Source: Zea mays | Taxonomy: Eukaryota; Streptophyta; Magnoliopsida; Poales; Poaceae | Length of the DNA stretch: 64,000 nt | Assembly: GCF_902167145.1 (NCBI RefSeq) | Contig: NC_050098.1 | Coordinates: 133,002,207 to 133,066,206 of the forward strand | Reading direction: 5' to 3' | Part shown: piece after piece, positions 31,206-61,323 of the stretch | Layout: each line of letters opens with the position of its first letter | How positions within the stretch are numbered: the stretch's first letter is position 1 | The notes under the pieces: generated by a model | Database searches by the model: none | What the model saw: only the letters and a program-made list of their open reading frames with translations | What the model was told of the DNA's origin: nothing | Program-made: the position numbers and the translations under genes

Positions 31206-31927
31206 GGGCGAGGACGCGATTCCTCCCGAGGTCGAGGTTGAGGCCGAGACCTGGGGTCGGGCGAGGCGGAGACCACCTTCCGAGGCCGAGGTTGAGGCCG
31301 AGCCCTATGGTCGGGCGAGGCGGAGACCACCTTCCGAGGCCGAGGTTGAGGCCGAGCCCTGGGGTCAGGCGAGGCGGAGACCTCCTCCTGAGGACGAGGC
31401 CCAAGGTCGGGCGAGGCGGAGCTTCCTGTTGTGCCTGAGGCTGAACTTAGCTGTTGTCAGCCTCATCCTGACGGGTGGCACAGCAGTTGGAGCGGGGCGA
31501 GCGGTGCTGTTTTCCTGTCGGGTCGGTCAGTGGAAGGGCGAAGTGACTGCGGTCACTTCGACCTTGCCGACTGAGGCACGTGTGTTAGGATAAGGTGTCA
31601 GGCAATCCTCGCATTGAATGCGCCTGCGATACGGTTGGTTGGTGAGGCGATTTGGCCAAGGTTGCTTCACAACGAAGCCTGCCCGAGCTGGGCTTCGGGC
31701 GAGTCGAGGGTGCGCCCGTTGCTTGAGGAGGCCCTCGGGCGAGGCGTGACTTCGTCCGGGACTATAGTTCCCGCCCGAGGCTGGGCTCGGGCGAGGCGAG
31801 ATCGTGTCCCTTGGGTAGACGAAGCCTTGACCTGAACCGCACCCATCAGTCTTAGCGGTTTGTGCTGATGGTGGTTACCAGCCGCGTTTAGGAGTGTTGG
31901 GGGTACCCCTAATTACGGTACCCAACA
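31206..31927 (-). repeat. Element A 5' LTR, upstream part
   Basis: Continuation of the LTR after E; ends GGTACCCAACA at 31927, next to TSD AGTAC. The palindrome-like TTGGGGGTACCCC/GGTACCCAA block (31898-31927) forms the LTR tip. Confidence 0.85.
31225..31435. repeat. 54-bp GC-rich tandem repeat in element A LTR
   Basis: About four units with CCGAGGTTGAGGCCGAG, GGTCGGGCGAGGCGGAGAC and CACCTTCCGAGG. Element E inserted at the edge of this array: GGTCGGGCG also precedes its left end. Confidence 0.9.
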
Positions 31928-31932
31928 AGTAC

Positions 31933-32545
31933 TAACTCAAGGAAACCCTAGTGACTCATGTGTACTATAAAGGAAAGTTGTATTCAAAATACAACTTGAT
32001 GTATCTCTATTATAACTACATATTCATAGCATCACATGAGCATTCATGTATATATATGGTTATGTATAGAAAACGAAGAAGGAGTGAGTGTCGAAGAAGA
32101 AGAGACTGTACCACCAACTGAGACTCCACCTGTCGGGAACAGTTTTTATTTCGATATCTGTAGAACAGATCCCGAATCCCCTACAACACAAGGCAAGCCC
32201 CGGTGCATTTACCTTTTCCTTGAGATTTTAAACTCTTTATCACTTGAATGATGCATTAGGTGATAGGAGTTGGATGCTAAATCATTTGCTGCATTTCCTT
32301 CCTTGGAACTGTTTACCCTTCCTTGATTACCTATTTTGTTAAAAAGTTTTCTGATGCTTAGTCTTGCTTTAGAAAACAAAAATGTTTTGGTTTTAACAAA
32401 AGATGATGCTTCAGATGGAATGGGATGTTTTAAAAATAAAATTGAAGAGAGTCTCGGTGTAGTGTCTACGTCTGAGTCAATTAAGGACCGTGTCGATGTA
32501 GGCCTGACCGCCTGATGATCGAGGACCTTTTAACTGGTCACATGT
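31933..32545 (+). repeat. Element 1 3' LTR, segment 3 of 4
   Basis: The LTR resumes after A's TSD (TAACTCAAGG...). The 71-codon ORF at 32036 is not conserved with anything I know. It ends GGTCACATGT, which in D (other strand, about 52440-52455) runs straight on into sequence now found at 50235, giving the empty site of element B. Confidence 0.8.
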
Positions 32546-35500
32546 TGTAACACCCGGTTTTAAGGAACAAAGTCGGGTGCATCTCATACATGCGCCAAGA
32601 AGACAACATATATAATAACAGAGTGTATAGAGATAAATGTCATAAAACATCAGAGTATTTATTACATAGCGGAAGACTTAATACAAAATAAAAGAATAAA
32701 CATAAAACGAACTAAGGATCGTCGGCGCCAATGTCAACTGAGAAACGCCACCTAGATCAGATCAAACTCCTCGCCTTATGGCTCCTCCTGAACCACCTGC
32801 TCTTCTCCTGTGGGGGGGTGTGAGACAGCAAGAGTGAGCTCACATACGTTCATCGCTCAACAAGTTGTGGGGAATAATGTGGCATGAACTCACCAAAGGT
32901 GGGAGTTCATGAAGTGTAAGGCTGATCAATGATATAAGGCTGAAGCTGAGCATTGCTTTTATAAGTTGGTCAAAATTTTATTAGCAATTACTAAGTATAA
33001 GTAAATACCAACCCTTAGAAATAATAAATAAAAGTAATAGTGAAATAATCCCAGATGCAATGAAATGACAGATTGAGTTTAAGTTCCATAAATTAATCAT
33101 GTGAGTGTCCGAGCCGCTCATGACCGTGAGCACGGCTAGTATACCAGTTTTACACTCTGCAGAGGTTGCGCATCTTTACCCACAAGTCGTGTTACCCATT
33201 TGCCACAGAGTTGATCAGACTCCATACACCTCTACCAAGGAAGCGAGGCAGGGTACCACTATGAGGCCTTTACAAAGTTCCACTAGCTTCAGACTACCCG
33301 CTACAGTTTATAGGAAGCTCCAGTGCAGGGTTCTTGCCTGACCGCCATCACAGAAAAATCAACCAAGGACCTCCCTACACTGACCACTCCCCTACTGCCC
33401 TTGCCACTTTCGGGTAAGGTAGCCCTCCACTAGCTTTCCTAGTTAATCAGCCAAGGGCGTCCCATAAACCCTTGTGGTAGCACTGTTTTCCCGGGTGGTT
33501 CTCCATGTTCCCATTAACATAATGATCTTAACATGGACAGTAAAGAATAAAACAGATAATAAGAAGCATAACAATGAGTGATGAATATCTCTATACCCAA
33601 TCCACATAAAGCAATAGCATGAACTACCCAAAACTTTAGTAGTAAAACCAATGGTGAAACAAGGTATAAAGATAGTCAAATCTAGGGTAACCTATTAGGT
33701 CCCAGCAAAATTAACCTATGCAGATCATTATGAATAATAAGAACATGAATGGGTAAAAGAAGTGATCAAGGGCACAACTTGCCTTCAACGAGCTCCTGCT
33801 CAGCTATCTCTACTTGCTGATCCTCAGGTTCCACAGTGGCTTGCTCGTCTACTCGCATCAACACAATACATACATAGTATAGCATAAATTAACATCACAT
33901 CAAACATGCAAATGAAATATACAGTAACAAACTAAACATTAAAATATGCTCACAGGAATTGGAATCATTAAATTTGGAGTTATATATTTTAAGTTATGGA
34001 TTTTCTAATGTTTTATGTGCTTAATACAAGATTAAGTGATAGATAAATTTTAAATCATCTCTCATGTTAAAACAGAGGCACTAATGGTTAGACAATAATT
34101 TTATAAAAATTTAGGAACTGGAATGGACCAATTTGGAGTTTATATGCATTTTCTATGAATTATACAAATTCTATGAATTGTTTTTATATTAAAAACTCAT
34201 TTTCTAATTCATTTCCCTGATTTTATAATTCTCTGGACGGGGCCTCATTTTCTAGAAAACGCAGGGGCTACGGCGTAAAAGAACCTAAGACACAGGCCGC
34301 AACCCAGCTGGACGGCGGGTTGTTTTGGTGAAAACCAAGGGGGCTCTTGACGAAAATGCCACGACTGAGCGAACACAGGTGCGCCTGGGCCATCCATTTA
34401 AAGATCTAGGGCCCAGATTTAAACAGCGAACCAGTATGCGATTTCAGCCGCGCAATCCACGATCTACGGTCCAGATCCAAAGTCCACTTCATCCAACCGG
34501 TGTACACCCAGGTCCACAAGATTCTGATCTAACGGCCAGTTGCTCACCCACCACAGGATTTAATCACATCCGCACAATTTGGATCGGACGGCCCATGACT
34601 CATCACACTATCGTCCAATCGGAGCCGTTGATTACAAGATCAACGCCCAGCGCCTTCTCTTCCCCACGCCGCAACCAGGCGGCGGCGTTTGCACAGGGCC
34701 ACGGCAGAGACCATCGCCGGGAGACCGCTAATCCCGCACCCTGATGCTTTATCTTCAATCAATCGAGCGCTACGCGTAGAGGAGGAGATGACGAACACAA
34801 TGGATGGCTCCTTACCGGTTTTCGCGCAGCAGAGCTAGTTGCCCACGGTGGAGAACGGATCCGCGATGGAGGTCTGGCGCCGGTGAGAAATTGTGACGCG
34901 ACCGTACAAGTTCTGGGGGGGGAAGCCATGACACCACTGGGACGCCCCTACGACCCTCCCAAGTCACCAATCGAGAACGGAGCATGACCCAGGACGTAGA
35001 CCGGCGACGGCGCTCCTCCGCTTTTCTCTCTCCTCCACATTTCCCTTGCACGGCTCCACTCACTCTGGATGGCGTCCCTGAGTCCACAATCGGGCGGACG
35101 AGAGGAGCATCAAGGTCGGCAATTTATAGTGGCCATAGCCCATGGTCCCGCGGGAGGGGAACCCGATAAGCTGGGTTCGGTTGTTACAACAACCCAACGA
35201 TACTCACGCGGAGGAAGAAGCTCCTGGCGCAAGGGGCCCACCACGATGTCACGGCGTGCGCCCGGCCAGCAGATTGTGAGGCCGACCCTCGCGGTCCCAC
35301 AGGGTCAGTGACCCACCTTTCAGTGCGACGACGCGCGCGGGAGTGGAAACCTGGGCCGCGCGGGGTAATCTCCTAGTGGGCCGAATACATGGGATTGGGC
35401 CCAATACGCCATTCCCCATTCTTTTATCCTTTTTATTTTCTGTTTTTGTTTTCCCTTTTTATTTCCAAATCTAAAAATGAGTTTAGATTTCTCCACAAGA

Positions 35501-35862
35501 TTTGTGTTCAAATTAATCATTCAATTTGAATACATCAATGTGGGGTCAATTTATTTATTTATGGATTTATTTTGGTGTTTTATAATATTTCTTTCTTCTT
35601 TTCTATTTAAATCCCAAATTCAAATCTAGAGTTTAATCTAAATCTTCTACTCATTATAATATATATTTTTTTATCCATGTTACCATTGTTTTAAATGCAC
35701 AAACAACCAAGAATCCAGTATGATGCAATAGCTTATTTGTGTCTTATTGAGGAATTACCCCTTTTTTCATGAGTGGTCACATGTGATGATAAATGGAGGT
35801 ACACACATATTTAAAGGAAACAATTCCTCTTTTTATTTTCCCTTACAATTTTGAGTATTACA
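32546..35862 (-). repeat. Element B left LTR (3' LTR), uninterrupted
   Basis: 3,317 bp, plus-strand start TGTAACACCCGGTTTTAAGG, end GAGTATTACA. A minus-strand TATAAATT is at 35123-35129. It shows the empty target site of C (TTATTACATAGCGG near 32663). About 20 differences from the right copy fall before about 34470 and essentially one after it. The small ORFs (for example 34325-34744 on the plus strand) are repeated in both LTR copies and carry no recognisable domain. Confidence 0.9.
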
Positions 35863-36078
35863 CATGCCTCGTCATGGGTAAGCTTTGCCTCAGGCAGACC
35901 AATACCAGAAAGGCCAACACGCAATGGGAGTGGAGAGATGGCGAGAGTAGCGTGTACCCTCCGTGGCAAGAGGCTGGACGGTGGTGTATCTGTGCTCTCG
36001 GTTGGCGTGAACCCGGTCTGGTCTTGAGAAACCCGGTGGCGAGTTGACATATGCAAGGGTTAAGTGCTACATATGTCG
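35863..36078. repeat. 216-bp duplicate of element 1 LTR sequence inside element B
   Basis: By eye it is identical to 50230-50445, where it belongs to element 1's LTR just outside B's right end. Here it joins B's left LTR to B's internal region. The counterpart in D (52190-52420, other strand) confirms it is host LTR, not part of B. Confidence 0.9.
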
Positions 36079-36903
36079 CATCACCAATTTGTCCTTTGCG
36101 GATTTCTTGCTCCAAAGTAGGTTCCACATCAATAGTAACTCCTTCAGTGTGAGCAACTATCCCCAGGTTAAGTCTCCTGAAATCCTCAACAATCTCATCA
36201 GGTAGCTGGGCAACAATAGCTGAATGAACATGCTCCTTGCGACTCAAGGCATCTGCAACCAAATTTGCCTTACCCGAGTGATAGTGAATCTCCAAATCAT
36301 AATCCTTAATAAGCACCAACCAACGACGTTGCCTAAGGTTGAGATCCTTCTGAGTGAATATATACTTCAAACTCTTATGATCTGTGTATACTTGGCACTT
36401 GGTTCCCATAATATAATGTCTCCATATCTTAAGCGCATGCACAGCGGCTGTCAGCTCTAAGTCATGAGTGGGGTAGTTCAACTCGTGCTTCCGCAACTAA
36501 CGAGACGCATAGGCAATCACATGTCCTTCTTACATGAGCACACATCCAAAGCCTTAACCGCATGCATCACAATAAATGTCAAATCTTTTCTGTAGATCTG
36601 GCTTAACCAACATTGGGATGACATCAATCTCAACTTCAGTTGGTTAAAACTATCTTGGTACTTTTTGTCCCACTTAAACTCTCTTCCCTATCTGGTGGCA
36701 TCCCTGGTAACTCCTATGGAAAGACATCCGGAAAATCTCTAACCACCCGGATGTTGTCACCAACAAACTTCTCATCTACTAAGAATGCCGCTAGTTTGGT
36801 GGCGGTAGTTACTGCAATTCCAACTTCAAATCTTTCTCCTTTGGAACTGGTGAGTTCTATGGTTCCCTTAGCACAATGTATAAACTGTCTTTGCCTTTCT
36901 TAA
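36079..36903 (-). pseudogene. pol: Element B pol remnant (protease end, RNase H, start of integrase)
   Basis: Minus-strand order from 36903: end of the protease-RT linker (FPDVFP, a stop, ELPGMPPDR), then a jump over the whole RT catalytic domain to a connection region (FKWDKKYQDSFNQLK), RNase H ([50 protein letters not shown]) and the first residues before integrase ([12 protein letters not shown]) where coding ends at the 216-bp host segment. At least two deletions plus stops and frameshifts. The ORF at 36496-35858 is a chance fusion of RNase H with host LTR sequence. Confidence 0.85.
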
Positions 36904-37430
36904 CCATGACATACCAAGGATCAAGTCTATACTGCTCTCTTCTAACATTATAGGGGTAGCCCATCTGGGTTAGAAATACAGGGTAAGAAAAGAAGAATTG
37001 TAGACAAGGTGAGTAATTATGAGGAATGTTACTATGGGGGATTTATTAGCTAAGCAGATTAATGTTTTACCTACTAAAGCTAACTCAATATCTTATGGTG
37101 GTACATGCTAAGATGTCCATCTATAATATTTCAATCAATCAAAGAAGCAAATCAGGCATTTATCATCAGAACAATCAAGCAACATTTTAAATAGAGAAAA
37201 TAGTTTTAAATTTTGTCTTGGGTTCCCTATCTCTTAAAAGATCATAGTGGTAGGATTCCAAGGTGTGAAATCCATCTTGTCTTAGAATAGAGGAGGTAAG
37301 AATGATCAGAGTAGAACAGCAAAAGGTGAGACAAGATCAAGATGAGATGAGTATAGAATGAGTCAGAGTAAGGTAAGTAGGAAAGGGTCTGTCCATTTCT
37401 ATCTAGGTTTCGTCCTACAGTCAACATTTC
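36904..37430 (-). other. Element B untranslated leader, gag deleted
   Basis: Between the primer-binding site and the protease remnant; AT-rich, no Gag motif. Either gag was deleted or this copy derives from a gag-less variant. Confidence 0.6.
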
Positions 37431-37441
37431 CTCTGATACCA
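37431..37441 (-). other. Primer-binding site of element B (initiator Met tRNA type)
   Basis: Minus strand TGGTATCAGAG, four bases (GAAG) after the LTR end. It proves that the right LTR is the 5' LTR and that B reads on the minus strand. Confidence 0.9.
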
Positions 37442-37445
37442 CTTC

Positions 37446-37568
37446 TGTAACACCCAGTTTTAAGGAACAAAGTCGGGTGCATCTCATACATGCGCCAAGA
37501 AGACAACATATATAATAACAGAGTGTATAGAGATAAATGTCATAAAAATCAGAGTATTTATTACATAG
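37446..37568 (-). repeat. Element B right LTR (5' LTR), part before C
   Basis: Plus-strand start TGTAACACCCAG; ends in CATAG, the TSD of C. Continues at 47036. Confidence 0.9.
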
Positions 37569-38880
37569 TGAAAGGGAATTAGGCTTACACCTAGTCCCTA
37601 ATTAATTTTGGTGGTTGAATTGCCCAACACAAATAATTGGACTAACTAGTTTGCTCAAGTGTATAGATTATACAGGTGTAAAAGGTTCACACTTAGCCAA
37701 TAAAAAGATCAAGTTTTTGGATTCAACAAAGGAGCAAAGAGGCAACCGAAGGCACCTCTGGTCTGGGGGCACCGGACTGTCCGGTGTACACCGGACAGTG
37801 TCCGGTGCACCACCGGACAGTATCCGGTGCACCAGAGGACTCCAACTCGAACTCGTCACCTTCGGGAAATTCCAGAGGCGACTCCGCTATAATTCACCGG
37901 ACTGTCCGGTGTACACCGGACAGTGTCCGGTGCTCCAAGGGAGAGCCGCCCCAGGAACTCGCCAGCCTCGGGAATTTACTTCAGCCGCTCCGCTATAATT
38001 CACCGGACTGTCCGGTGTACACCGGACTGTCCGGTGTAACAGCGGAGCAATGTCTATTTCGGCGCCAACGGCTACCTGCGTCGCATTAAATGCGCGCGCA
38101 GCACGCGCAGATGTCAGACTCGCCCATACTGGCGCACCGGACATCCAACAGTACATGTCCGGTGTGCACCAGACATCCAGGCGGGCCCACAAATCAGAAG
38201 CTCCAACGGTCAGAATCCAACGGCAGTGATGACGTGGCGGGGGCACCGGACTGTCCGGTGCGCCATCGAACAGACGCCTCCACCAACGGTCAAGTTTGGT
38301 GGTTGGGGCTATAAATACCCCAACCACCCCACCATTCATTGCATCCAAGTTTTCCACTTTTCAACCACTTACAAGAGCTAGGCATTCAATTCTAGACACA
38401 CCAAAGAGATCAAATCCTCTCCAATTCCACAAAAGGCTCTAGTGATTAGCGAGAGAGATTTGCCGTGTTCTTTTGAGCTCTTGCGCTTGGATTGCTTCTT
38501 TTCTTTCTCACTTGCTCTTGTGATCAACACTCAATTGTAATCAAGGCAAGAGGCACCAATTGTGTGGTGGCCCTTGCGGGGAAGTTTTATTCCCGGCTTT
38601 GATTTGAGAAGAGAAGCTCACTCGGTCCGAGGGACCGTTTGAGAGAGGGAAGGGTTGAAAGAGACCCGGCCTTTGTGGCCTCCTCAACGGGGAGTAGGTT
38701 TGCGAGAACCGAACCTCGGTAAAACAAATCCGCGTGTCACACTCTTCATTTGCTTGCGATTTGTTTTGCGCCCTCTCTCGTGGACTCGATTATATTTCTA
38801 ACGCTAACCCGGCTTGTAGTTGTGATTATTTTTGAGAATTTCAGTTTCGCCCTATTCACCCCCCCTCTAGGCGACTATCA
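37569..38880 (+). repeat. Element C 5' LTR
   Basis: 1,312 bp, TGAAAGGGAATTAGGC to GGCGACTATCA. Palindromes of the type CACCGGACTGTCCGGTG and single half-sites cluster at 37769-38265. Confidence 0.95.
38310..38317 (+). promoter_or_regulatory. TATA box of element C 5' LTR
   Basis: TATAAATA within the palindrome-like GGTTGGGGC...CCCCAACC, about 45 nt after the last CCGGTG half-site. Confidence 0.8.
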
Positions 38881-38882
38881 AT

Positions 38883-38894
38883 TGGTATCAGAGC
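38883..38894 (+). other. Primer-binding site of element C (initiator Met tRNA type)
   Basis: TGGTATCAGAGC, two bases after the 5' LTR. Confidence 0.95.
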
Positions 38895-38925
38895 CCGGTG
38901 CTTCATTAGAGCCTAACCGCTCGAA

Positions 38926-41625
38926 GTGATGTCGGGAGATCACGCCAAGAAGGAGATGGAAACCGGCGAAAAGCCCACTACAAGCCACGGGAGCACTTCA
39001 TCGGAAGAGTCCCGCACAAAGAGGAAGGAGAAGAAGAAGGACTCCTCCAAACGGAAGGAGAAAAGATCTTCCTCTTCTCACCACAAAGAGAAGAAGGAAA
39101 AATCTTCTTCTCACAAGTCGCATCGGAAAGGCGACAAGCACAAGAGAATGAGGAAAGTGGTCTACTACGAGACCGACACTTCTTCGACATCGACCTCCGA
39201 CTCCGATGCGCCCTCCGTAACTTCTAAACACCAAGAGCGTAAGAAGTTTAGTAAGATCCCCTTACACTATCCTCATACATCTAGACATACTCCATTACTT
39301 TCCGTTTCATTAGGCAAACCGCCAACCTTTGACGGTGAAGATTATGCTAGGTGGAGTGATTTAATGAAATTTCATCTAACCTCACTCCACAAAAGTATAT
39401 GGAATGTTGTTGAGTTTGGAGCACAGGTACCATCAATAGGGGATGAGGATTATGATGAGGACGAGGTGGCCCAAATCGAGCACTTCAACTCCCAAGCCAC
39501 AACCATACTCTTGGCCTCTCTAAATAGAGAGGAGTACAACAAGGTGCAAGGGTTGAAAAATGCAAAGGAAATTTGGGACCTCCTCAAGACCGCGCACGAG
39601 GGTGATGAACTAACAAAGATCACCAAGCGGGAAACGATCGAGGGGGAGCTCGGTCGCTTCCGTCTTCGCCAAGGGGAGGAGCCACAAGATATGTACAACC
39701 GGCTCAAAACCTTGGTGAACCAAGTGCGCAACCTCGGGAGCAAAAAGTGGGACGATCACGAGGTGGTTAAGGTTATTCTAAGAGCTCTTATTTTCCTTAA
39801 CCCCACTCAAGTTCAATTAATTCGTGGTAATCCTAGATACCCACTAATGACCCCCGAGGAAGTTATCGGGAATTTTGTGAGCTTTGAATGTATGATTAAA
39901 GGATCAAAGAAGATCAACGAGCTTGACGAACCCTCCACATCCGAGGCGCAACCGGTGGCCTTCAAGGCGACGGAGGAGAAGAAAGAGGAGTCTACACCAA
40001 GTAGACAACCAATTGACGCCTCCAAGCTCGACAATGAGGAGATGGCTTTAATCATCAAAAGCTTTCGCCAAATCCTCAAGCAACGGAAGGGGAAAGACTA
40101 CAAATCCCGTTCCAAGAAGGTTTGCTACAAGTGTGGTAAGCCCGGTCACTTTATCGCTAAATGTCCATTATCAAGTGACAGTGACAGGGACAACGACAAG
40201 AAGGGCAAGAGAAGAGAAAAGAAGAGGTACCACAAGAAGAGGGGCGGCGATGCCCACGTATGCCGCGAGTGGGACTCCGACGAGAGCTCCACCGAGTCCT
40301 CCTCCGACGAGGACGCCGCCAACATCGCCGTCACCAAGGGGCTTCTCTTCCCCAACGTCGGCCACAAGTGCCTCATGGCAAAGGACGGCAAAAGGAAAAA
40401 GGTTAAATCTAAATCCTCCACAAAATATGAGTCCTCTAGTGATGAAAATGCTAGTGATGAGGAGGATAACTTGCTTACCCTTTTTGCCAATCTTAACATG
40501 GAACAAAAGGAAAAATTAAATGAATTGATTAGTGCTATTCATGAAAAAGATGACCTTTTGGATTCCCAAGAGGATTTTCTAATTAAAGAAAACAAGAAAC
40601 ATGTTAAGGTTAAAAATGCTTTTGCTCTAGAAGTAGAAAAATGTCAAAAACTATCTAGTGAGCTAAGCACTTGCCATGACACTATTGCCAACCTTAGAAA
40701 TGAAAATACTAGTTTAATTGCTAAGGTTGAGTCTCATGTTTGTGATGCTTCAATTCCCAATCTTAGAAATGATAATAATGACTTGCTTGCTAAGATTAAG
40801 GAATTGAATGATTCTCTTGCTAGCCTTAGAGTAGAAAATGAAAATTTGATTGCTAAGGCTAAAGATTTTGATGTTTGCAATTCTATTATTTCCGACCTTA
40901 GAACTAAGAATGATATGTTACATACTAAGGTTGTTGAATTAAAATCTTGCAAACCCTCTACATCTAATGTTGAGCATGTTTCTATTTGTACTAGATGTAG
41001 AGATGTTGATATCAATGCTATTCATGATCACATGTCCTTAATTAAACAACAAAATGATCATATAGCAAAACTAGATGCAAAAATTGCCGAGCATAACTTG
41101 GAAAATGAAAAGTTTAAATTTGCTAGAAGTATGCTCTATAATGGGAGACGCCCGGGCATCAAGGATGGCATTGGCTTCCAAAGGGGAGACAATGTCAAAC
41201 TTAATGCCCCTCCTAAAAATTTGTCTAACTTTGTTAAGGGCAAGGCTCCCATGCCTCAGGATAACGAGGGTTACATTTTGTACCCTGCCGGTTATCCCGA
41301 GAGCAAAATTAGGAGAATTCACTCTAGGAAGTCTCACTCTGGCCCTAATCATGCTTTTATGTATAAGGGTGAGACATCTAGTTCTAGGCAACCAACCCGT
41401 GCCAAGTTGCCTAGAAAGAAAACTCCTATTGCATCAAATGATCATGCTATTTCATTCAAAACTTTTGATGCATCATATGTGCTTACTAACAAATCCGGCA
41501 AGGTAGTTGCCAAGTTTGTTGGGGGCAAACACAAGGGCTCCAAGACTTGTGTTTGGGTACCCAAAGTTCTTGTGTCTAATGCTAAAGGACCCAAAACTGT
41601 TTGGGTACCTAAAGTCAAGAACTAA
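38926..41625 (+). CDS. gag: Gag polyprotein of Sirevirus element C (intact)
   Basis: 899 aa with no stop. Residues about 1-95 are Lys/Ser/Glu-rich (KRKEKKKDSSKRKEKR). The copia Gag core spans about 125-330 (FDGEDYARW, ATTILLASLNREEYNKVQGL, MYNRLKTLVNQV). The CCHC zinc knuckle CYKCGKPGHFIAKC is at about 402-415, then an acidic region (DESSTESSSDED), a long coiled coil (about 520-740) and a basic tail with repeated VWVPK motifs, all typical of large Sirevirus Gags. The start at 38926 is preceded by about 30 nt from the primer site. The next ORF (pol) is in a different frame. Acts in cytoplasmic particle assembly. Confidence 0.92.
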   Translation: MMSGDHAKKEMETGEKPTTSHGSTSSEESRTKRKEKKKDSSKRKEKRSSSSHHKEKKEKSSSHKSHRKGDKHKRMRKVVYYETDTSSTSTSDSDAPSVTSKHQERKKFSKIPLHYPHTSRHTPLLSVSLGKPPTFDGEDYARWSDLMKFHLTSLHKSIWNVVEFGAQVPSIGDEDYDEDEVAQIEHFNSQATTILLASLNREEYNKVQGLKNAKEIWDLLKTAHEGDELTKITKRETIEGELGRFRLRQGEEPQDMYNRLKTLVNQVRNLGSKKWDDHEVVKVILRALIFLNPTQVQLIRGNPRYPLMTPEEVIGNFVSFECMIKGSKKINELDEPSTSEAQPVAFKATEEKKEESTPSRQPIDASKLDNEEMALIIKSFRQILKQRKGKDYKSRSKKVCYKCGKPGHFIAKCPLSSDSDRDNDKKGKRREKKRYHKKRGGDAHVCREWDSDESSTESSSDEDAANIAVTKGLLFPNVGHKCLMAKDGKRKKVKSKSSTKYESSSDENASDEEDNLLTLFANLNMEQKEKLNELISAIHEKDDLLDSQEDFLIKENKKHVKVKNAFALEVEKCQKLSSELSTCHDTIANLRNENTSLIAKVESHVCDASIPNLRNDNNDLLAKIKELNDSLASLRVENENLIAKAKDFDVCNSIISDLRTKNDMLHTKVVELKSCKPSTSNVEHVSICTRCRDVDINAIHDHMSLIKQQNDHIAKLDAKIAEHNLENEKFKFARSMLYNGRRPGIKDGIGFQRGDNVKLNAPPKNLSNFVKGKAPMPQDNEGYILYPAGYPESKIRRIHSRKSHSGPNHAFMYKGETSSSRQPTRAKLPRKKTPIASNDHAISFKTFDASYVLTNKSGKVVAKFVGGKHKGSKTCVWVPKVLVSNAKGPKTVWVPKVKN

Positions 41626-41638
41626 AATTGTTTTGTAG

Positions 41639-44600
41639 GTTTATGCATCCGGGGGCTCAAGTTGGATACTCGACAGCGGGTGCACAAACCACATGACAGG
41701 GGAGAAGAAGATGTTCTCCTCATATGAGAAAAACCAAGATCCCCAACGAGCTATCACATTCGGGGATGGAAACCAAGGTTTGGTCAAAGGATTGGGTAAA
41801 ATTGCTATATCACCTGACCATTCCATTTCCAATGTTTTTCTTGTTGATTCATTAGATTACAACTTGCTTTCTGTATCCCAATTATGTCATATGGGCTACA
41901 ACTGTCTATTCACTGATGTAGGTGTCACTGTCTTTAGAAGAAGTGATGATTCAATAGCATTTAAGGGAGTGTTAGAGGGTCAGCTATACTTGGTAGATTT
42001 TGATAGAGCTGAACTCGACACTTGCTTAATTGCTAAGACTAACATGGGTTGGCTCTGGCACCGCCGACTAGCCCATGTTGGGATGAAGAATCTTCATAAG
42101 CTTCTAAAGGGAGAACACATTTTAGGATTAACAAATGTTCATTTTGAGAAAGACAGGATTTGTAGCGCATGCCAAGCAGGGAAGCAAGTTGGTGCTCATC
42201 ATCCACACAAGAACATCATGACTAGTGACAGGCCACTGGAGCTCCTACACATGGACCTATTCGGCCCGATCGCTTACATAAGCATCGGCGGGAGTAAGTA
42301 CTGTCTAGTTATTGTGGATGATTATTCTCGCTTCACTTGGGTGTTCTTTTTGCAGGAAAAATCTCATACCCAAGAGACCTTAAAGGGATTCTTGAGATGG
42401 GCTCAAAATGAGTTCGGCTTAAGGATCAAGAAAATTAGAAGCGACAACGGGACGGAGTTCAAGAACTCTCAAATTGAAGGCTTCCTTGAGGAGGAGGGCA
42501 TCAAGCATGAGTTCTCTTCTCCCTACACCCCACAACAAAATGGTGTAGTGGAGAGGAAGAATCGAACTCTATTGGACATGGCAAGAACCATGCTTGATGA
42601 GTACAAGACTTCGGATCGGTTTTGGGCCGAGGCGGTCAACACCGCTTGCTACGCCATCAACCGGTTGTATCTACACCGAATCCTCAAGAAGACATCCTAT
42701 GAACTCCTAACCGGTAAAAAGCCAAATATTTCATATTTTAGAGTTTTTGGTAGCAAATGTTTTATACTTGTTAAAAGAGGTAGAAAATCTAAATTTGCTC
42801 CTAAAACTGTAGAAGGCTTTTTACTAGGATATGACTCAAACACAAGGGCATATAGAGTCTTTAACAAGTCCTCAGGACTTGTTGAAGTTTCTTGTGACGT
42901 TGTGTTTGATGAGACTAACGGCTCTCAAGTAGAGCAAGTTGATCTTGATGAGATAGGTGAAGAACAGGCTCCATGCATAGCGCTAAGGAACATGTCCATT
43001 GGGGATGTGTGTCCTAAGGAATCCGAAGAGCCTCCACATGCACAAGATCAACCATCCTCCTCCATGCAAGCATCTCCACCAACTCAAATTGAGGATGAGG
43101 CTCAAGATGTTGAACAAGAGGATCAAGAAGATGAGCCACCTCAAAATGACGGCAATGATCAAGGGGGAGATGCAAATGATGAAGACAAGGAGGATGAAGA
43201 ACCAAGGCCGCCACACCCAAGAGTCCACCAAGCAATCCAACGAGATCACCCCGTCGACACCATCCTCGGCGACATTCAAAAGGGGGTAACTACTAGATCT
43301 CGTGTTGCACATTTTTGTGAACATTACTCGTTTGTTTCCTCTATTGAGCCACACAAGGTAGAGGAAGCACTACAAGATTCGGACTGGGTGGTGGCGATGC
43401 AAGAGGAGCTCAACAACTTCACTAGGAATGAGGTATGGCATTTGGTTCCACGTCCTAATCAAAATGTTGTAGGAACCAAATGGGTCTTCCGCAACAAGCA
43501 AGATGAGCATGGTGTGGTGACAAGGAACAAAGCTCGAATTGTGGCCAAGGGATACTCCCAAGTCGAAGGTTTGGATTTCGGTGAAACCTATGCACCCGTA
43601 GCTAGGCTTGAGTCAATTCGCATATTATTAGCCTATGCTACTTACCATGGCTTTAAGCTTTATCAAATGGACGTGAAAAGTGCCTTCCTCAATGGACCAA
43701 TCAAGGAAGAGGTCTATGTTGAGCAACCTCCCGGCTTTGAAGACAGTGAGTATCCTAACCATGTCTATAAGCTCTCTAAGGCGCTTTATGGGCTCAAGCA
43801 AGCCCCAAGAGCATGGTATGAATGCCTGAGATTTTCTTATTGCTAATGGCTTCAAAGTCGGAAAAGCCGATCCTACACTCTTTACTAAAACTCTTGAAAA
43901 TGACTTGTTTGTATGCCAAATTTATGTTGATGATATTATATTTGGATCTACTAACGAGTCTACATGTGAAGAGTTTAGTAGGATTATGACACAGAAATTC
44001 GAGATGTCTATGATGGGGGAGTTGAAGTATTTCTTAGGATTCCAAGTAAAGCAACTCCAAGAGGGCACCTTCATTAGCCAAACGAAGTACACTCAAGACA
44101 TTCTAAACAAGTTTGGGATGAAGGATGCCAAGCCCATCAAGAAACCCATGGGAACCAATGGGCATCTCGACCTCGACACGGGAGGTAAGTCCGTGGATCA
44201 AAAGGTATACCGGTCGATATTGGTTCATTGCTTTATTTATGTGCATCTCGACCGGACATTATGCTTTCCGTTTGCATGTGTGCAAGATTCCAAGCCGACC
44301 CTAAGGAAGCTCACCTTACGGCCGTAAAACGAATCTTGAGATATTTGGCTTATACTCCTAAGTTTGGGCTTTGGTATCCTAGGGGATCCACATTTGATTT
44401 GATTGGTTATTCAGATGCCGATTGGGCGGGGTGCAAAATCAATAGGAAGAGCACATCGGGGACTTGCCAGTTCTTGGGAAGATCCTTGGTGTCTTGGGCT
44501 TCAAAGAAGCAAAATTCGGTCGCTCTTTCCACCGCCGAAGCCGAGTACATTGCCGCAGGACATTGTTGCGCGCAATTGCTTTGGATGAGGCAAACCCTGC

Positions 44601-44878
44601 GGGACTACGGCTACAAATTAACCAAAGTCCCTTTGCTATGTGATAATGAGAGTGCAATCAAGATGGCGGATAATCCTGTCGAACATAGTCGCACTAAACA
44701 CATAGCCATTCGGTATCATTTTCTTAGGGATCACCAACAAAAGGGAGATATCGAGATTTCATACATTAATACTAAAGATCAATTAGCCGATATCTTTACC
44801 AAGCCTCTTGATGATCAATCTTTTAACAAACTTAGGCATGAGCTCAATATTCTTGATTCTAGGAACTTCTTTTGTTAA
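41639..44878 (+). pseudogene. pol: Pol polyprotein of Sirevirus element C (protease, integrase, RT, RNase H; two frameshifts)
   Basis: The frame opens right after a TAG (41636-41638) and has no ATG before 41693. Protease begins [18 protein letters not shown], with the active-site DSG at about residues 12-14. Integrase: GAG pre-integrase finger ([10 protein letters not shown]...CSACQAGK), catalytic Asp in LLHMDLFG, Asp in IRSDNGTEF and Glu in VVERKN. An acidic linker (about 43020-43220) precedes RT ([44 protein letters not shown]) and RNase H (GYSDADWAG, STAEAEYIAA, DNESAIKMA, HIAIRYHFLRD). A small loss of about 2 nt near 43829 and one of 1 nt near 44217 break the frame, so no full Pol can be made. 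Confidence 0.93.
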
Positions 44879-45699
44879 ATTGCACACATTGCTCTTCTAT
44901 ATACCTTTGATCATGTCTCTTTCCTATGCTATGACTAATGTATTTTTCAAGTCTATTTCAAACCAAGTCATAGGTGTATTGAAAGGGAATTGGAGTCTTC
45001 GGCGAAGACAAAGGCTTCCACTCTGTAACTCATCCTTCGCCGTCGCTCCAAGAGACTCTCCATCTTTGGGGGAGAGAACAAAAGGACTTCGTCTTTGGTA
45101 TAATATTAACTCATCTATTTATGACCAAAGGGGAAGATAGCACTTCGAGGGCTCTAATGCTTCCGTTTTTGGCGATTCATGCCAAAGGGGGAGAAAGTAT
45201 GAGCCCAAAGCAAAAGGACCGCACCACCACCAATTTCAAAAACTTCGTGTTTCCAAGAATATTATCAATTAGTATCCTATTGTGTTCAAAAGGGGGAGAA
45301 AGTAGTATTTCAAAAAGGATATATCAAAACCCTCTTGAACACTAAGAGGAGGATCTCATCTAGGGGGAGTTTTGTTTGGTCAAAGGAAAAGCATTTGAAA
45401 CAGGGGGAGAAAATTTCAAATCTTGAAAATGTTTCTCAAAATCTTATTCATTTGCCTTTGACTGTTTGCAAAAGAACTTTGAAAAGGATTTACAAAAGAG
45501 TTTGCAAAAACAAAACATGTGGTGCAATCGTGGTCCAAAATGTTAAATAAGAAAGAAACGATCCATGCATATCTTGTAAGTACTTAGATTGGCTCAATTC
45601 CAAGCAACGTTTACACTTACATTATGCAAACTAGTTCAGTTATGCACTTCTATATTTGCTTTGGTTTGTGTTGGCATCAATCACCAAAAAGGGGGAGAT
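44879..45699 (+). other. Multi-polypurine region of element C and true PPT
   Basis: Non-coding stretch after pol with repeated purine runs: AAAGGGGGAGAAAG near 45184 and 45290, CTAGGGGGAG near 45361, CAGGGGGAGAAAA near 45401, and the true tract AAAAAGGGGGAGA at 45686-45698, abutting the 3' LTR. Small ORFs (44808, 45121, 45335) read through these runs and are not genes. Confidence 0.85.
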
Positions 45700-47030
45700 T
45701 GAAAGGGAATTAGGCTTACACCTAGTCCCTAATTAATTTTGGTGGTTGAATTGCCCAACACAAATAATTGGACTAACTAGTTTGCTCAAGTGTATAGATT
45801 ATACAGGTGTAAAAGGTTCACACTTAGCCAATAAAAAGATCAAGTTTTTGGATTCAACAAAGGAGCAAAGAGGCAACCGAAGGCACCTCTGGTCTGGGGG
45901 CACCGGACTGTCCGGTGTACACCGGATAGTGTCCGGTGCACCACCGGACAGTATCCGGTGCACCAGAGGACTCCAACTCGAACTCGTCACCTTCAGGAAA
46001 TTCCAGAGGCGACTCCGCTATAATTCACCGGACTGTCCGGTGTACACCGGACAGTGTCCGGTGCTCCAAGGGAGAGCCGCCCCAGGAACTCGCCAGCCTC
46101 GGGAATTTACTTCAGCCGCTCCGCTATAATTCACCGGACTGTCCGGTGTACACCGGACTGTCCGGTGTAACAGCGGAGCAACGGCTATTTCGGCGCCAAC
46201 GGCTACCTGCGTCGCATTAAATGTGCGCGCAGCGCGCGCAGATGTCAGACTCGCCCATACTGGCGCACTGGACATCCAACAGTACATGTCCGGTGTGCTC
46301 CGGACATCCAGGCGGGCCCACAAATCAGAAGCTCCAACGGTCAGAATCCAACGGCAGTGATGACGTGGCGGGGGCACCGGACTGTCCGGTGTGCACCGGA
46401 CTGTCCGGTGCGCCATCGAACAGACGCCTCCACCAACGGTCAAGTTTGGTGGTTGGGGCTATAAATACCCCAACCACCCCACCATTCATTGCATCCAAGT
46501 TTTCCACTTCTCAACCACTTACAAGAGCTAGGCATTCAATTCTAGACACACCAAAGAGATCAAATCCTCTCCAATTCCACAAAAGGCTCTAGTGATTAGC
46601 GAGAGAGATTTGCCGTGTTCTTTTGAGCTCTTGCGCTTGGATTGCTTCTTTTCTTTCTCACTTGCTCTTGTGATCAACACTCAATTGTAATCAAGGCAAG
46701 AGGCACCAATTGTGTGGTGGCCCTTGCGGGGAAGTTTTATTCCCGGCTTTGATTTGAGAAGAGAAGCTCACTCGGTCCGAGGGACCGTTTGAGAGAGGGA
46801 AGGGTTGAAAGAGACCCGGCCTTTGTGGCCTCCTCAACGGGGAGTAGGTTTGCAAGAACCGAACCTCGGTAAAACAAATCCGCGTGTCACACTCTTCATT
46901 TGCTTGCGATTTGTTTTGTGCCCTCTCTCGTGGACTCGATTATATTTCTAACGCTAACCCGGCTTGTAGTTGTGATTATTTTTGAGAATTTCAGTTTCGC
47001 CCTATTCACCCCCCCTCTAGGCGACTATCA
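45700..47030 (+). repeat. Element C 3' LTR
   Basis: 1,331 bp. Compared with the 5' LTR it has one extra GTGCACCGGACTGTCCG-type unit (19 bp) near 46380-46410, so palindrome number differs between the two LTRs of one element. Confidence 0.95.
46460..46467 (+). promoter_or_regulatory. TATA box of element C 3' LTR
   Basis: TATAAATA at the position equivalent to 38310; it could drive read-through transcription into the B LTR. Confidence 0.75.
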
Positions 47031-47035
47031 CATAG

Positions 47036-50000
47036 CGGAAGACTTAATACAAAATAAAAGAATAAACATAAAACGAACTAAGGATCATCGGCGCCAATGT
47101 CAACTGAGAAACGCCACCTAGATCAGATCAAACTCCTCGCCTTGTGGCTCCTCCTGAACCACCTGCTCTTCTCCTGTGGGGGGGGTGTGAGACAGCAAGA
47201 GTAAGCTCACATACGTTCATCGCTCAACAAGTTGTGGGGAATAATGTGGCATGAACTCACCAAAGGTGGGAGTTCATGAAGTGTAAGGCTGATCAATGAT
47301 ATAAGGCTGAAGCTGAGCATTGCTTTTATAAGTTGGTCAAAATTTTATTAGCAATTACTAAGTATAAGTAAATACCAACCCTTAGAAATAATAAATAAAA
47401 GTAATAGTGAAATAATCCGAGATGCAATGAAATGACAGATTGAGTTTAAGTTCCATAAATTAATCATGTGAGTGTCCGAGCCACTCATGACCGTGAGCAC
47501 GGCTAGTATACCAGTTTTACACTCTACAGAGGTTGCGCATCTTTACCCACAAGTCGTGTTACCCATTTGCCACAGAGTTGATCAGACTCCATACACCTCT
47601 ACCAAGGAAGCGAGGCAGGGTACCACTACGAGGCCTTTACAAAGTTCCACTAGCTTCAGACTACCCGCTACAGTTTATAGGAAGCTCCAGTGCAGGGTTC
47701 TTGCCTTACCGCCATCGCAGCAAAATCAACCAATGACCTCCCTACACTGACCACTCCCCTACTGCCCTTGCCCCTTTCGGGTAAGGTAGCCCTCCACTAG
47801 CTTTCCTAGTTAATCAGCCAAGGGCGTCCCATAAACCCTTGTGGTAGCAGTGTTTTCCCGGGTGGTTCTCCATGTTCCCATTAACATAATGATCTTAACA
47901 TGGACAGTAAAGAATAAAACAGATAATAAGAAGCATAACAATGAGTGATGAATATCTCTATACCCAATCCACATAAAGAAATAGCATGAACTACCCAAAA
48001 CTTTAGTAGTAAAACCAATGGTGAAACAAGGTATAAAGATAGTCAAATCTAGGGTAACCTATTAGGTCCCAGCAAAATTAACCTATGCAGATCATTATGA
48101 ATAATAAGAACATGAATGGGTAAAAGAAGTGATCAAGGGCACAACTTGCCTTCAACGAGCTCCTGCTCAGCTATCTCTACTTGCTGATCCTCAGGTTCCA
48201 CAGTGGCTTGCTCGTCTACTCGCATCAACACAATACATACATAGTATAGCATAAATTAACATCACATCAAACATGCAAATGAAATATACAGTAACAAACT
48301 AAACATTAAAATATGCTCACAGGAATTGGAATCATTAAATTTGGAGTTATATATTTTAAGTTATGGATTTTCTAATGTTTTATGTGCTTAATACAAGATT
48401 AAGTGATAGATAAATTTTAAATCATCTCTCATGTTAAAACAGAGGCACTAATGGTTAGACAATAATTTTATAAAAATTTAGGAACTGGAATGGACCAATT
48501 TGGAGTTTATATGCATTTTCTATGAATTATACAAATTCTATGAATTGTTTTTATATTAAAAACTCATTTTCTAATTCATTTCCCTGATTTTATAATTCTC
48601 TGGACGGGGCCTCATTTTCTAGAAAACGCAGGGGCTACGGCGTAAAAGAACCTAAGACACAGGCCGCAACCCAGCTGGACGGCGGGTTGTTTTGGTGAAA
48701 ACCAAGGGGGCTCTTGACGAAAATGCCACGACTGAGCGAACACAGGTGCGCCTGGGCCATCCATTTAAAGATCTAGGGCCCAGATGTAAACAGCGAACCA
48801 GTATGCGATTTCAGTCGCGCAATCCACGATCTACGATCCAGATCCAAAGTCCACTTCATCCAACCGGTGTACACCCAGGTCCACAAGATTCTGATCTAAC
48901 GGCCAGTTGCTCACCCACCACAGGATTTAATCACATCCGCACAATTTGGATCGGACGGCCCATGACTCATCACACTATCGTCCAATCGGAGCCGTTGATT
49001 ACAAGATCAACGCCCAGCGCCTTCTCTTCCCCACGCCGCAACCAGGCGGCGGCGTTTGCACAGGGCCACGGCAGAGACCATCGCCGGGAGACCGCTAATC
49101 CCGCACCCTGATGCTTTATCTTCAATCAATCGAGCGCTACGCGTAGAGGAGGAGATGACGAACACAATGGATGGCTCCTTACCGGTTTTCGCGCAGCAGA
49201 GCTAGTTGCCCACGGTGGAGAACGGATCCGCGATGGAGGTCTGGCGCCGGTGAGAAATTGTGACGCGACCGTACAAGTTCTGGGGGGGGAAGCCATGACA
49301 CCACTGGGACGCCCCTACGACCCTCCCAAGTCACCAATCGAGAACGGAGCATGACCCAGGACGTAGACCGGCGACGGCGCTCCTCCGCTTTTCTCTCTCC
49401 TCCACATTTCCCTTGCACGGCTCCACTCACTCTGGATGGCGTCCCTGAGTCCACAATCGGGCGGACGAGAGGAGCATCAAGGTCGGCAATTTATAGTGGC
49501 CATAGCCCATGGTCCCGCGGGAGGGGAACCCGATAAGCTGGGTTCGGTTGTTACAACAACCCAACGATACTCACGCGGAGGAAGAAGCTCCTGGCGCAAG
49601 GGGCCCACCACGATGTCACGGCGTGCGCCCGGCCAGCAGATTGTGAGGCCGACCCTCGCGGTCCCACAGGGTCAGTGACCCACCTTTCAGTGCGACGACG
49701 CGCGCGGGAGTGGAAACCTGGGCCGCGCGGGGTAATCTCCTAGTGGGCCGAATACATGGGATTGGGCCCAATACGCCATTCCCCATTCTTTTATCCTTTT
49801 TATTTTCTGTTTTTGTTTTCCCTTTTTATTTCCAAATCTAAAAATGAGTTTAGATTTCTCCACAAGATTTGTGTTCAAATTAATCATTCAATTTGAATAC
49901 ATCAATGTGGGGTCAATTTATTTATTTATGGATTTATTTTGGTGTTTCATAATATTTCTTTCTTCTTTTCTATTTAAATCCCAAATTCAAATCTAGAGTT

Positions 50001-50229
50001 TAATCTAAATCTTCTACTCATTATAATATATATTTTTTTATCCATGTTACCATTGTTTTAAATGCACAAACAACCAAGAATCCAGTATGATGCAATAGCT
50101 TATTTGTGTCTTATTGAGGAATTACCCCTTTTTTCATGAGTGGTCACATGTGATGATAAATGGAGGTACACACATATTTAAAGGAAACAATTCCTCTTTT
50201 TATTTTCCCTTACAATTTTGAGTATTACA
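47036..50229 (-). repeat. Element B right LTR (5' LTR), part after C
   Basis: Completes the right LTR to 3,317 bp in total, ending GAGTATTACA. Minus-strand TATA-like motif at 49489-49495. Sequence from about 48840 on is almost identical to the left copy. Confidence 0.9.
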
Positions 50230-51261
50230 CATGCCTCGTCATGGGTAAGCTTTGCCTCAGGCAGACCAATACCAGAAAGGCCAACACGCAATGGGAGTGG
50301 AGAGATGGCGAGAGTAGCGTGTACCCTCCGTGGCAAGAGGCTGGACGGTGGTGTATCTGTGCTCTCGGTTGGCGTGAACCCGGTCTGGTCTTGAGAAACC
50401 CGGTGGCGAGTTGACATATGCAAGGGTTAAGTGCTACATATGTCGTGTGATTGGAGATCCTCAACTGAGTATTAATCAATTCAGATCGTCGTTACTTCTC
50501 GGACATGAAGACTTGGTCACTGACTTACATGTAGCAATCCAGTAAACTAAAAGGATGATGAAAAGATGGCTAGTGTTGGCCAAGTGCTTGAACTAGGGTA
50601 GAAAGAACTCTAGATTCAGGTAATGACTTAACTTGATAATAAAACTAGATTTTTCTATGGATCCACTGTTAGTAAGCATTTCTACAAACAGGGTCTTTGA
50701 TTCTTGAATAGCCTTACCTTGACTCCTTCAAGCCAGCATATCCTTGAGAGTATTTTTCTTTTGTTGGGTAAGACTTTTGAAAGTACACTCAGTACTCAGG
50801 GTTTTCGAACCCATGTTGTTGTAGGAGAGGAAAAACCAGAGTTTTGCTGTTTCTGTTCAAAGGTGGTACCCAAGGAAGAGCCCCAGCAGTGAAGGTGGTC
50901 GCGGGAGGATGTTTGCCTCCCACTTTGAAATCAATAAACTTTTGTGCGGGAGGGTGTTTTGCCTCCCTGTTCTGTAATAATACTTTATGCACTCATAATA
51001 CCCTGGTATTGTAATAATAGTACTCTATATATATATATATATATATATATATGTAAATTAAATTATTGTAATTTGCTTCTGCTGATTCTTTCCTCTGATG
51101 TGATGTAATATCTGCGTGACGGGTGAATCGCTCTTGGGCATAATGATGAGGATATAGTTACCGAACTTGTCGAGTGATTATGTGCATCTACAGGGTTGTC
51201 CAAGGTCCCCTGGACAAGGACAACAGTAGGTGGGCCTAATACCTTGGGAGGTTCCATCACA
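50230..51261 (+). repeat. Element 1 3' LTR, segment 4 of 4
   Basis: After B's TSD the LTR continues to its end, GGTTCCATCACA at 51261. It contains AATCAATAAACTTTTGTG at about 50928 (a poly(A)-signal-like AATAAA) and the TA microsatellite. The end differs from D's terminal GGTTGTGACA, so the two LTRs belong to related but distinct subfamilies. Confidence 0.8.
51026..51052. repeat. (TA)n microsatellite
   Basis: About 13 TA units within element 1's LTR. Confidence 0.95.
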
Positions 51262-60153: not shown

Positions 60154-60169
60154 TAATGGACTCCATAAC

Positions 60170-61323
60170 TGAAAGTCGCATAAAGGGGGGTGAATAGGCA
60201 AATCTGAAATTTATAAACTTTAAGCACAACTACAAGCTGGGGTTAGCGTTAGAAATAAAGTCGAGTCCGAAAAAGAGGGCAAAAACAAATCAACCAAGAA
60301 AATAGAGCGGATGACACGGTGATTTATTTTACCGAGGTTCGGTTCTTGCAAACCTACTCCCCGTTGAGGTGGTCACAAAGACCGGGTCTCTTTCAACCCT
60401 TTCCCTCTCTTAAACGGTCACTTAGACCGAGTGAGCTTCTCTTCTCAATCAATTGGGACACTTAGTCCCCACAAGGACCACCACACAATTGGTGTCTCTT
60501 GCTTTGATTACAAATGTCTTGGGAACAAGAAATAGGGAAGAAGAAAAGCGATCCAAGCGCAAGAGCTCAAAGAACACGGGCAAAACTCTCTCTTCTAGTC
60601 ACTAATTTCTTTGAGTGGAATTGGGACTTGTAGAGACTTTGATTCAATCTAATTGTGTCTTGTATTGAATGCACTAGCTCTGTATTGAATGTGTTGGCTG
60701 AAAACTTGGATGCCTTGAAGTGTGGTGGTTGGGGGGGTATTTATAGCCCCAACCACCAAAGTGGCCGTTGGGGAGGCTGTCCGTCGACGGGCGCACCGGA
60801 CACTGTTCGGTGCGCCAGCCACGTCACCCAACCGTTAGGGTTCGACCGTTGGAGCTTCTGACAGCTGGGCCACCGGACAGTCAGGTGGTGCACCGGACAG
60901 GTACTGTTCACTGTCTGGTGCGCCTTCTGGCGCCTGCTCTGACTCTGCGCGCGCTATCCGCGCACTGTAGCTTCACTGTTCACTTTTGCAGACGATCGTT
61001 GGCAGTGATAGTTGTTGCTCCGTATGGCACACCGGATAGTCTGATGAATTATAGTAGAGTGGCTCCCCAAATTCCCGAAACTGAGCAGTCCAGAGTGGAT
61101 TTCCCTGGTGCACCGGACAGTCCGATGCGCCAGACCAGGACAGCCTTCGGTTGGTTTTGCTCTTTTTCATTTGACCCTTTCTTAGACTTTTTATTGGTTT
61201 GTGTTGAACCTTTGGCACCTGTAGAACTTATAATCTAGAGCAAACTGGTTAGTCCAATTATTTGTGTTGGGCAATTCAACCACCAAATCATTTAGGAAAA
61301 GGTTTGACCCTATTTCCCTTTCA
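60170..61323 (-). repeat. Element H 3' LTR
   Basis: 1,154 bp, plus-strand start TGAAAGTCGCATAAAGG, end TTTCCCTTTCA. Degenerate CACCGGACAG/CTGTTCGGTG sites lie at 60794-61125. Confidence 0.88.
60738..60745 (-). promoter_or_regulatory. TATA box of element H 3' LTR
   Basis: Minus-strand TATAAATA in the same GGTTGGGGC context (other strand) as in C. Confidence 0.75.

What the first reader, a model, noticed from the sequence alone, without database searches (positions are those of the whole stretch)
32546..50445. Element B's LTR is duplicated together with 216 bp of the sequence outside the element
The left LTR (32546-35862) is followed by a 216-bp segment (35863-36078) identical by eye to 50230-50445, which is host LTR sequence just outside B's right end. 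Ordinary retrotransposition cannot copy flanking DNA. A model that fits: a double-strand break in or near the left LTR was repaired by copying the right LTR, synthesis ran past its end into flanking DNA, and the new end was joined to B's internal region at 36078/36079, deleting integrase and the polypurine tract. Unequal exchange with a solo-LTR allele is the alternative. It looks like a captured intermediate of LTR decay.
Basis: partly seen in the sequence, partly recalled or inferred. Interest (0 to 1): 0.75.

Follow-up and report, generated by a model that had tools for sequence, protein, structure and literature searches.

The report
Retrotransposon repeat copied with neighbouring DNA
In a maize-like chromosome, one end of a jumping element was recently overwritten with a copy of its other end plus 216 bases of the DNA beyond it, most likely when a broken chromosome was repaired using the other end as template; repair of this kind is known, and the unusual part is that the copy runs out of the repeat into its neighbour.

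Summary
The left LTR (32546-35862) is followed by 216 bp identical (216/216) to the host DNA X beyond B's right LTR. X is continuous across B's insertion point in 4 of 4 fetched X copies, so the left 216 bp is displaced. The LTR|X join was found at only two places in the 2.18-Gb genome, and the X-side LTR half (34470-35862) matches in full only at these two copies, so the donor is the local right LTR. New here: of 21 left/right differences, 20 lie in the first 1924 bp and 1 in the last 1609 bp. At 17 of 20 positions polarised on relatives, one LTR keeps the relatives' base. The copying is younger than B and probably than element C, nested in the right LTR. At the join, X and B's internal region share TCG (3 bp) by the closest relatives, G (1 bp) by most others; about 1.2 kb (polypurine tract, integrase) is missing.

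Best reading: break repair starting in the left LTR, copying the right LTR past its end, then end joining. Tandem duplication plus LTR-LTR recombination, or a join with a solo-LTR allele, predict the same sequence; assembly error is not excluded.

The parts
31929..32545 (.). Host repeat X, part left of B; last 5 bases CATGT are B's left TSD
   Evidence: X copies L009, L011 and L012 align from about 31928 on, L010 only from about 32259; site
32546..35862 (-). B left LTR (3' LTR in B's own direction); from 32546 to a limit between 33613 and 35581 original, remainder recently copied from the right LTR
   Evidence: changepoint test; X-side half matches in full only at the two local copies
35863..36078 (.). 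216-bp displaced copy of host repeat X, identical to 50230-50445
36078..36079 (.). Non-homologous join X | B internal region, microhomology TCG (or G only)
   Evidence: 6 of 6 relatives L003-L008 read TTTTCG|CATCACC, X reads ATGTCG|TGTG; of 34 internal relatives listed, 10 match from 36076 (TCG) and 24 from 36078 (G); 5 of 5 of L033-L037 read TTAG
36079..37445 (-). Remaining B internal region: Ty3/Gypsy RNase H, RT/protease remnants, leader and iMet-type PBS (TGGTATCAGAG, 37431-37441); about 0.8 kb of RT missing
   Evidence: Pfam RT_RNaseH E 6e-20; Ty3 in PDB; RT/protease remnants judged by eye against relatives' proteins, the three small pieces had no convincing Pfam match
37446..37568 (-). 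B right LTR (5' LTR in B's direction), first piece; ends with C's TSD CATAG
37569..47030 (.). Element C nested in B's right LTR (TGAAAGGG...GACTATCA; LTR pair 12 substitutions in about 1.3 kb)
47031..50229 (-). B right LTR, second piece (47031-47035 is C's second TSD copy); its right-hand part, up to 50229, is the donor of the copied tract
50230..51261 (.). Host repeat X, part right of B; 50230-50445 is the donor of the displaced 216 bp

Best explanation
B, a Ty3/Gypsy-type LTR retrotransposon on the minus strand, inserted into repeat X. Later C inserted into B's right LTR. Recently a double-strand break on the left side of B removed part of the left LTR, the polypurine tract and integrase. 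The surviving left end, inside the LTR, invaded the right LTR of the same element (same or sister chromatid); synthesis ran through the rest of the LTR and 216 bp into X, then stopped, and the new end was joined at a 1-3 bp microhomology to B's internal region in RNase H. That is synthesis-dependent repair that failed to anneal and finished by end joining. Shown: copying from the local right LTR plus flank; its recency; clustering of differences; loss of about 1.2 kb; the non-homologous join. Inferred: the break, the order of steps, the single event, and the microhomology, which is read from relatives.
For: 216/216 identity and contiguity of X in 4 of 4 copies; LTR|X junction at 2 places genome-wide; X-side LTR half with a full match only at the two local copies (40 of 1546 candidates scored). 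Differences: 17 of 21 in the first 1067 bp, 20 of 21 in the first 1924; best changepoint reached by 1 of 20000 shuffles, LTR alone 0, substitutions only 7, cluster 33340-33406 counted once 40. Control LTR pairs C, E1, E2: 2540, 17553 and 15660 of 20000. Polarised on relatives: 12 right-derived, 5 left-derived, 3 unresolved of 20 positions; 5 against 12 is not a significant imbalance (0.14). Tract (1 in 1609) is less diverged than C's LTRs (12 in 1302; Fisher 0.0009) and than E2's (0.004). Junction bases.
Against: Two-step routes give the same product. Microhomology of 3 bp or more is expected by chance in 5%; only 10 of 34 listed internal relatives share TCG, 24 share G alone, L033-L037 also only G, and the ranking that puts the TCG relatives first is helped by those very bases. 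With differences within 70 bp merged into 9 events, on the alignment whose C boundaries were slightly wrong, 982 of 20000 shuffles reached the value. Fillers in the papers I saw are 1-131 bp (passages of PMC2686159 and PMC4423477), so a copied tract of 0.5-2.5 kb needs real strand invasion. One genome only; no reads seen.
Confidence: 0.52

Rival explanations
1. Two steps: end joining first made a tandem duplication from RNase H (36079) through the right LTR, with C, to 216 bp into X (14.4 kb); then the old left LTR recombined with the first copy of the right LTR, deleting what lay between.
For: Junction and clustered differences are predicted exactly. A 22.7-kb tandem duplication in maize centromere 10 that begins in a retrotransposon coding region and ends in an LTR is reported (passages of PMC4806543). 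Two three-copy LTR arrays with equal spacing in this LTR family suggest LTR-LTR exchange.
Against: Needs two recent events; no trace of the intermediate in the window.
Confidence: 0.2
2. Join with a solo-LTR allele: a solo LTR formed on one chromosome (crossover in the LTR), then its X flank was end-joined to B's internal region on the other, full-length allele.
For: 32546-36078 by itself looks like a solo LTR with TSDs (CATGT/CATGC) and X on both sides; same difference pattern.
Against: Two events, one a non-homologous exchange between homologues; no variant data.
Confidence: 0.16
3. Assembly artefact: reads of the right LTR and its flank placed also on the left.
For: Misassembled solo LTRs and elements with mismatched TSDs in an earlier maize reference are documented (PMC4806543 passages); the tract is 99.9% identical.
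Against: The left copy joins to B's internal region at base level; the left LTR carries its own private bases, including 35581 within the tract, where 17 of 17 relatives agree with the right copy; 655 contigs for 2.18 Gb suggest a long-read assembly (inference).
Confidence: 0.08
4. The 216 bp is an ordinary part of the LTR or internal region of this family, or came in by read-through retrotransposition.
For: None found.
Against: Relative L033, the one examined, has the polypurine tract close behind the LTR end; the segment is part of X in 4 of 4 copies; the LTR|X junction is only local; in B's direction the flank lies upstream of the 5' LTR, so read-through from the 5' LTR cannot copy it.
Confidence: 0.01

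Closest known systems
Intra-element LTR gene conversion in plants (PMC7251063, parts of the abstract and passages seen)
   Same: One LTR overwritten by the other of the same element, giving a stretch of low divergence inside an older LTR pair; the abstract reports potential converted regions in 25% of LTR pairs
   Different: Here the tract leaves the LTR, takes 216 bp of host DNA and ends in a non-homologous join
Filler DNA / SDSA repair at plant breaks (PMC2686159 and PMC4423477, passages seen)
   Same: Deletion plus a copied nearby segment, closed by end joining
   Different: Fillers in those passages are 1-131 bp; here 0.5-2.5 kb with long homology at the start
[quoted passage not shown]
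   Same: Short-homology join between a retrotransposon coding region and other repeat sequence
   Different: There the duplicated block is whole and adjacent; here the left limit lies in LTR homology
Solo LTR by unequal LTR-LTR recombination (outlined in PMC7251063, passages)
   Same: Left unit alone looks like a solo LTR with TSDs
   Different: An internal region and a second LTR plus flank follow

Membership tests
Intra-element LTR gene conversion | Low-divergence tract within an otherwise older LTR pair | tested here: met
   20 of 21 differences in 1924 bp, 1 in 1609 bp; 1 of 20000 shuffles; weaker (982 of 20000) when differences within 70 bp are merged
Intra-element LTR gene conversion | Donor is the partner LTR | tested here: met
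   X-side half matches in full only at the two local copies; LTR|X junction only local
Intra-element LTR gene conversion | Tract confined to the homologous LTR | tested here: not met
   Runs 216 bp into X
SDSA / filler DNA with end joining | Copied segment from a nearby template at a deletion | tested here: met
   Copy from 14.4 kb away; 1212 bp lost relative to L033
SDSA / filler DNA with end joining | Non-homologous or microhomology join | tested here: met
   No long homology at the join; 3 bp TCG from 6 of 6 best internal relatives, 1 bp from 24 of 34 listed and from L033-L037
SDSA / filler DNA with end joining | Single event from a break | not testable with these tools
   Needs alleles or an induced-break assay
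Solo LTR | One LTR with matching TSDs and no internal region | tested here: not met
   Internal region and second LTR follow
Ty3/Gypsy LTR retrotransposon (element B) | LTR pair, TSD, iMet-type PBS, Ty3-type RNase H | tested here: met
   TSDs agree in 4 of 5 bases; PBS motif recognised from recall
Ty3/Gypsy LTR retrotransposon (element B) | Polypurine tract and integrase | tested here: not met
   No purine tract at 35863 on and no integrase match in 36079-37445 with three relatives' proteins, of which only P0009 reaches far into integrase; integrase present in 5 of 5 of L033-L037, polypurine tract seen in L033, the one examined. B is a damaged member

The most novel reading that the evidence does not exclude
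LTR gene conversion in maize can overrun the LTR: repair that starts in one LTR copies the partner and keeps going into host DNA, ending by microhomology joining, so that some 'solo LTR plus flank' structures and apparent local duplications are overrun conversions. This would be a recognisable, countable scar class.
Probability: 0.4. Interest if true: 0.5.

Novelty: new variant of a known kind. Interest (0 to 1): 0.4.

Why it matters
A host-DNA tag marks the direction and extent of an LTR-to-LTR copying event, which conversion confined to the LTR cannot show. The signature (LTR plus a flank copy next to the internal region, with a divergence step inside the LTR) can be searched for genome-wide to measure how often LTR repair overruns, and it is one more warning against dating elements by whole-LTR divergence: here the copied part makes the whole LTR pair look younger than its older part.

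Tried and rejected
Shared-mutation argument from the TSD: I first took CATGC on both right-flank copies as a shared derived change; X copies show CATGC is ancestral, so it says nothing. Divergence imported from other family members as the cause of the clustering: rejected at the 17 of 20 positions that could be polarised; at 33350 the left base is also seen in 6 of 28 relatives, 34419 and 34448 are unresolved too, and the indel at 32812 was not polarised. My first polarisation left 8 of 19 relatives in the wrong orientation and was redone. Searches used C boundaries that were off by a few bases; one search is the corrected run. Viral-contig searches confirmed no relatives. One search read no loci because of a file-name slip and was redone. 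The search for other copies of 36079-37445 and for the 36078/36079 junction pattern did not complete, so the uniqueness of that junction rests alone.

The nine paper searches listed nothing that I recognised, from titles and abstract openings, as an LTR conversion running into flanking host DNA; I saw passages of six of the listed papers and read none whole; the library is open-access only.

Full report
Setting. The window lies at G000:C3:133002207-133066206 of a 2.18-Gb assembly in 655 contigs. No call names the organism; the sizes and repeat types look to me like maize, probably inbred B73 (recalled). Element B is on the minus strand: its PBS (GAAGTGGTATCAGAGG, iMet type, recalled motif) adjoins the right LTR, and the internal piece 36079-37445 encodes RNase H of Ty3/Gypsy type. 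So the right LTR is B's 5' LTR and the left one its 3' LTR.

Anatomy. Left to right: X (to 32545, ending CATGT), LTR 32546-35862, 216 bp of X (35863-36078), internal 36079-37445, LTR 37446-37568, element C 37569-47030 with TSD CATAG, LTR from 47036 to 50229, X from 50230 on.

The 216 bp belongs to X and is displaced. X with one TSD copy kept, as an empty site, aligns without a break at the insertion point to 4 of 4 X copies fetched (L009-L012; 87-91% over the pieces spanning it), and to an inverted relative at 52508-51851 (74%). The site reads CATGC in 4 of 4 copies, so the left TSD CATGT carries a later change. The join LTR|X (30 bases, up to 2 mismatches) is found at two places in the genome, both in this window, and the reversed control pattern at none.

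The donor is the local right LTR. The half of the LTR next to X (34470-35862) has full-length matches only at the two local copies; the other 47 listed matches cover part of it (40 of 1546 candidates scored). By contrast 32546-33700 has 36 matches along its whole length and 2 almost so, at 94-97%, elsewhere in the genome (40 of 6318 candidates scored).

When. Left and right units differ at 21 places (19 substitutions, 2 one-base indels). 17 lie in the first 1067 bp, 20 in the first 1924, and 1 in the last 1609 bp. The best single changepoint was reached by 1 of 20000 shuffles; for the LTR alone 0, for substitutions alone 7, with the cluster 33340-33406 counted once 40. The LTR pairs of C and of two other elements in the window show no such step (2540, 17553 and 15660 of 20000). 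The harshest version, merging differences within 70 bp to 9 events on a slightly mis-set alignment, gave 982 of 20000. Of 20 positions checked against 14-28 relatives each, 12 are changed on the right, 5 on the left and 3 are unresolved, so most of the divergence is private mutation after insertion. At 1.3e-8 per site per year (rate as used in PMC2686159) the older LTR part gives 0.36-0.55 Myr, C 0.36 Myr and the copied tract 0.02 Myr; the upper 95% limit of 5.6 events is about 0.13 Myr. At the 3.3e-8 used in PMC4806543 all are about 2.5 times younger. The 1067-bp figure is biased upward because the cut was chosen on the data. The tract is less diverged than C's LTRs (Fisher 0.0009), so C probably was already in the right LTR; the copied tract lies wholly on the far side of C.

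The join. Of the 34 internal relatives listed for the query over the join, 10 match from 36076 (sharing TCG) and 24 from 36078 (sharing G only). The six best (L003-L008, 98-99%) all read TTTTCG before 36079; X reads ATGTCG. Their rank is helped by the extra bases, but three of them are 99% and the others listed 97-98%. In 5 of 5 members related by LTR (L033-L037) the bases are TTAG, which would leave 1 bp. B is closest to L003-L008 over the 300 bp next to the join, so 3 bp is the better guess; chance gives 3 bp or more in 5% of random joins. Proteins agree: of 120 listed relatives my pattern was found in 53, and in the 12 groups printed (49 of the 53) Ala follows GD, whose codon fixes the shared G.

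What was lost. In L033 the LTR is followed by a C-rich run that is a polypurine tract on the other strand, then integrase; 1212 bp lie between the LTR end and the base matching 36079. Integrase is found in 5 of 5 of L033-L037 and was not matched in 36079-37445 (three proteins, one reaching far into integrase). A separate gap of about 0.8 kb in RT has 5-14 bp of overlap at its ends, 12 bp in most pairs, as in deletion between short repeats; it need not belong to the same event.

Mechanism. The copied tract starts in LTR homology, ends beyond homology, and is closed without homology. Repair of one break by strand invasion into the partner LTR, copying and end joining explains all of it in one event. 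A tandem duplication of 36079-50445 with later LTR-LTR recombination, or an end join between a solo-LTR allele and the full allele, give the same letters, each with two events. I put these at 0.52, 0.20 and 0.16, an assembly error at 0.08. That some post-insertion recombination copied the right LTR and flank is much surer than which pathway did it.

Known ground. Conversion between LTRs of one element is common in plants (PMC7251063, passages). Filler DNA at maize and rice breaks is known but short in the passages I saw. End-joined duplications within retrotransposons are known in maize centromere 10. I found no report of LTR conversion overrunning into host DNA in nine searches of an open-access library, judged from titles and abstract openings, with passages of six papers seen. 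It is best called a new variant of known repair.

Noticed in passing
34470-35862 and 48837-50229: B's U3-side LTR half has no full-length match elsewhere among the scored candidates; pieces match different LTRs (C6:7750848 93%, C2:86480259 96%, C8:62791030 97%, C6:77115587 98%), which looks like a mosaic.
   Followed up: partly
G000:C1:183881799-183896581 and G000:C7:17442392-17457771: Two arrays of three B-family LTRs with equal spacing (6814/6811 and 7119/7117 bp), as expected from unequal LTR-LTR exchange.
   Followed up: no
32440-32450: X in the window lacks about 115-126 bp present in all four fetched X copies (L009-L012), about 100 bp before B's insertion point.
   Followed up: no
51851-52508: An inverted, 74% relative of X lies about 0.6 kb to the right of X's matched end.
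   Followed up: partly
35858-36496: An open frame of 212 codons on the minus strand runs from RNase H through the join into antisense X and LTR sequence; probably chance.
   Followed up: no
60167-63590: Minus-strand relative of element C (77-90% in pieces); at 63590 another repeat, related to 13778-14189, begins.
   Followed up: no
36079-36378: B's internal region is 95-100% identical to L003-L008 for 300 bp next to the join, then 79-91% over the next 300: perhaps a mosaic internal region.
   Followed up: no
31895-31928: Another LTR appears to end here (ACCCAACA) within X, which resumes at about 31929; read by eye.
   Followed up: no
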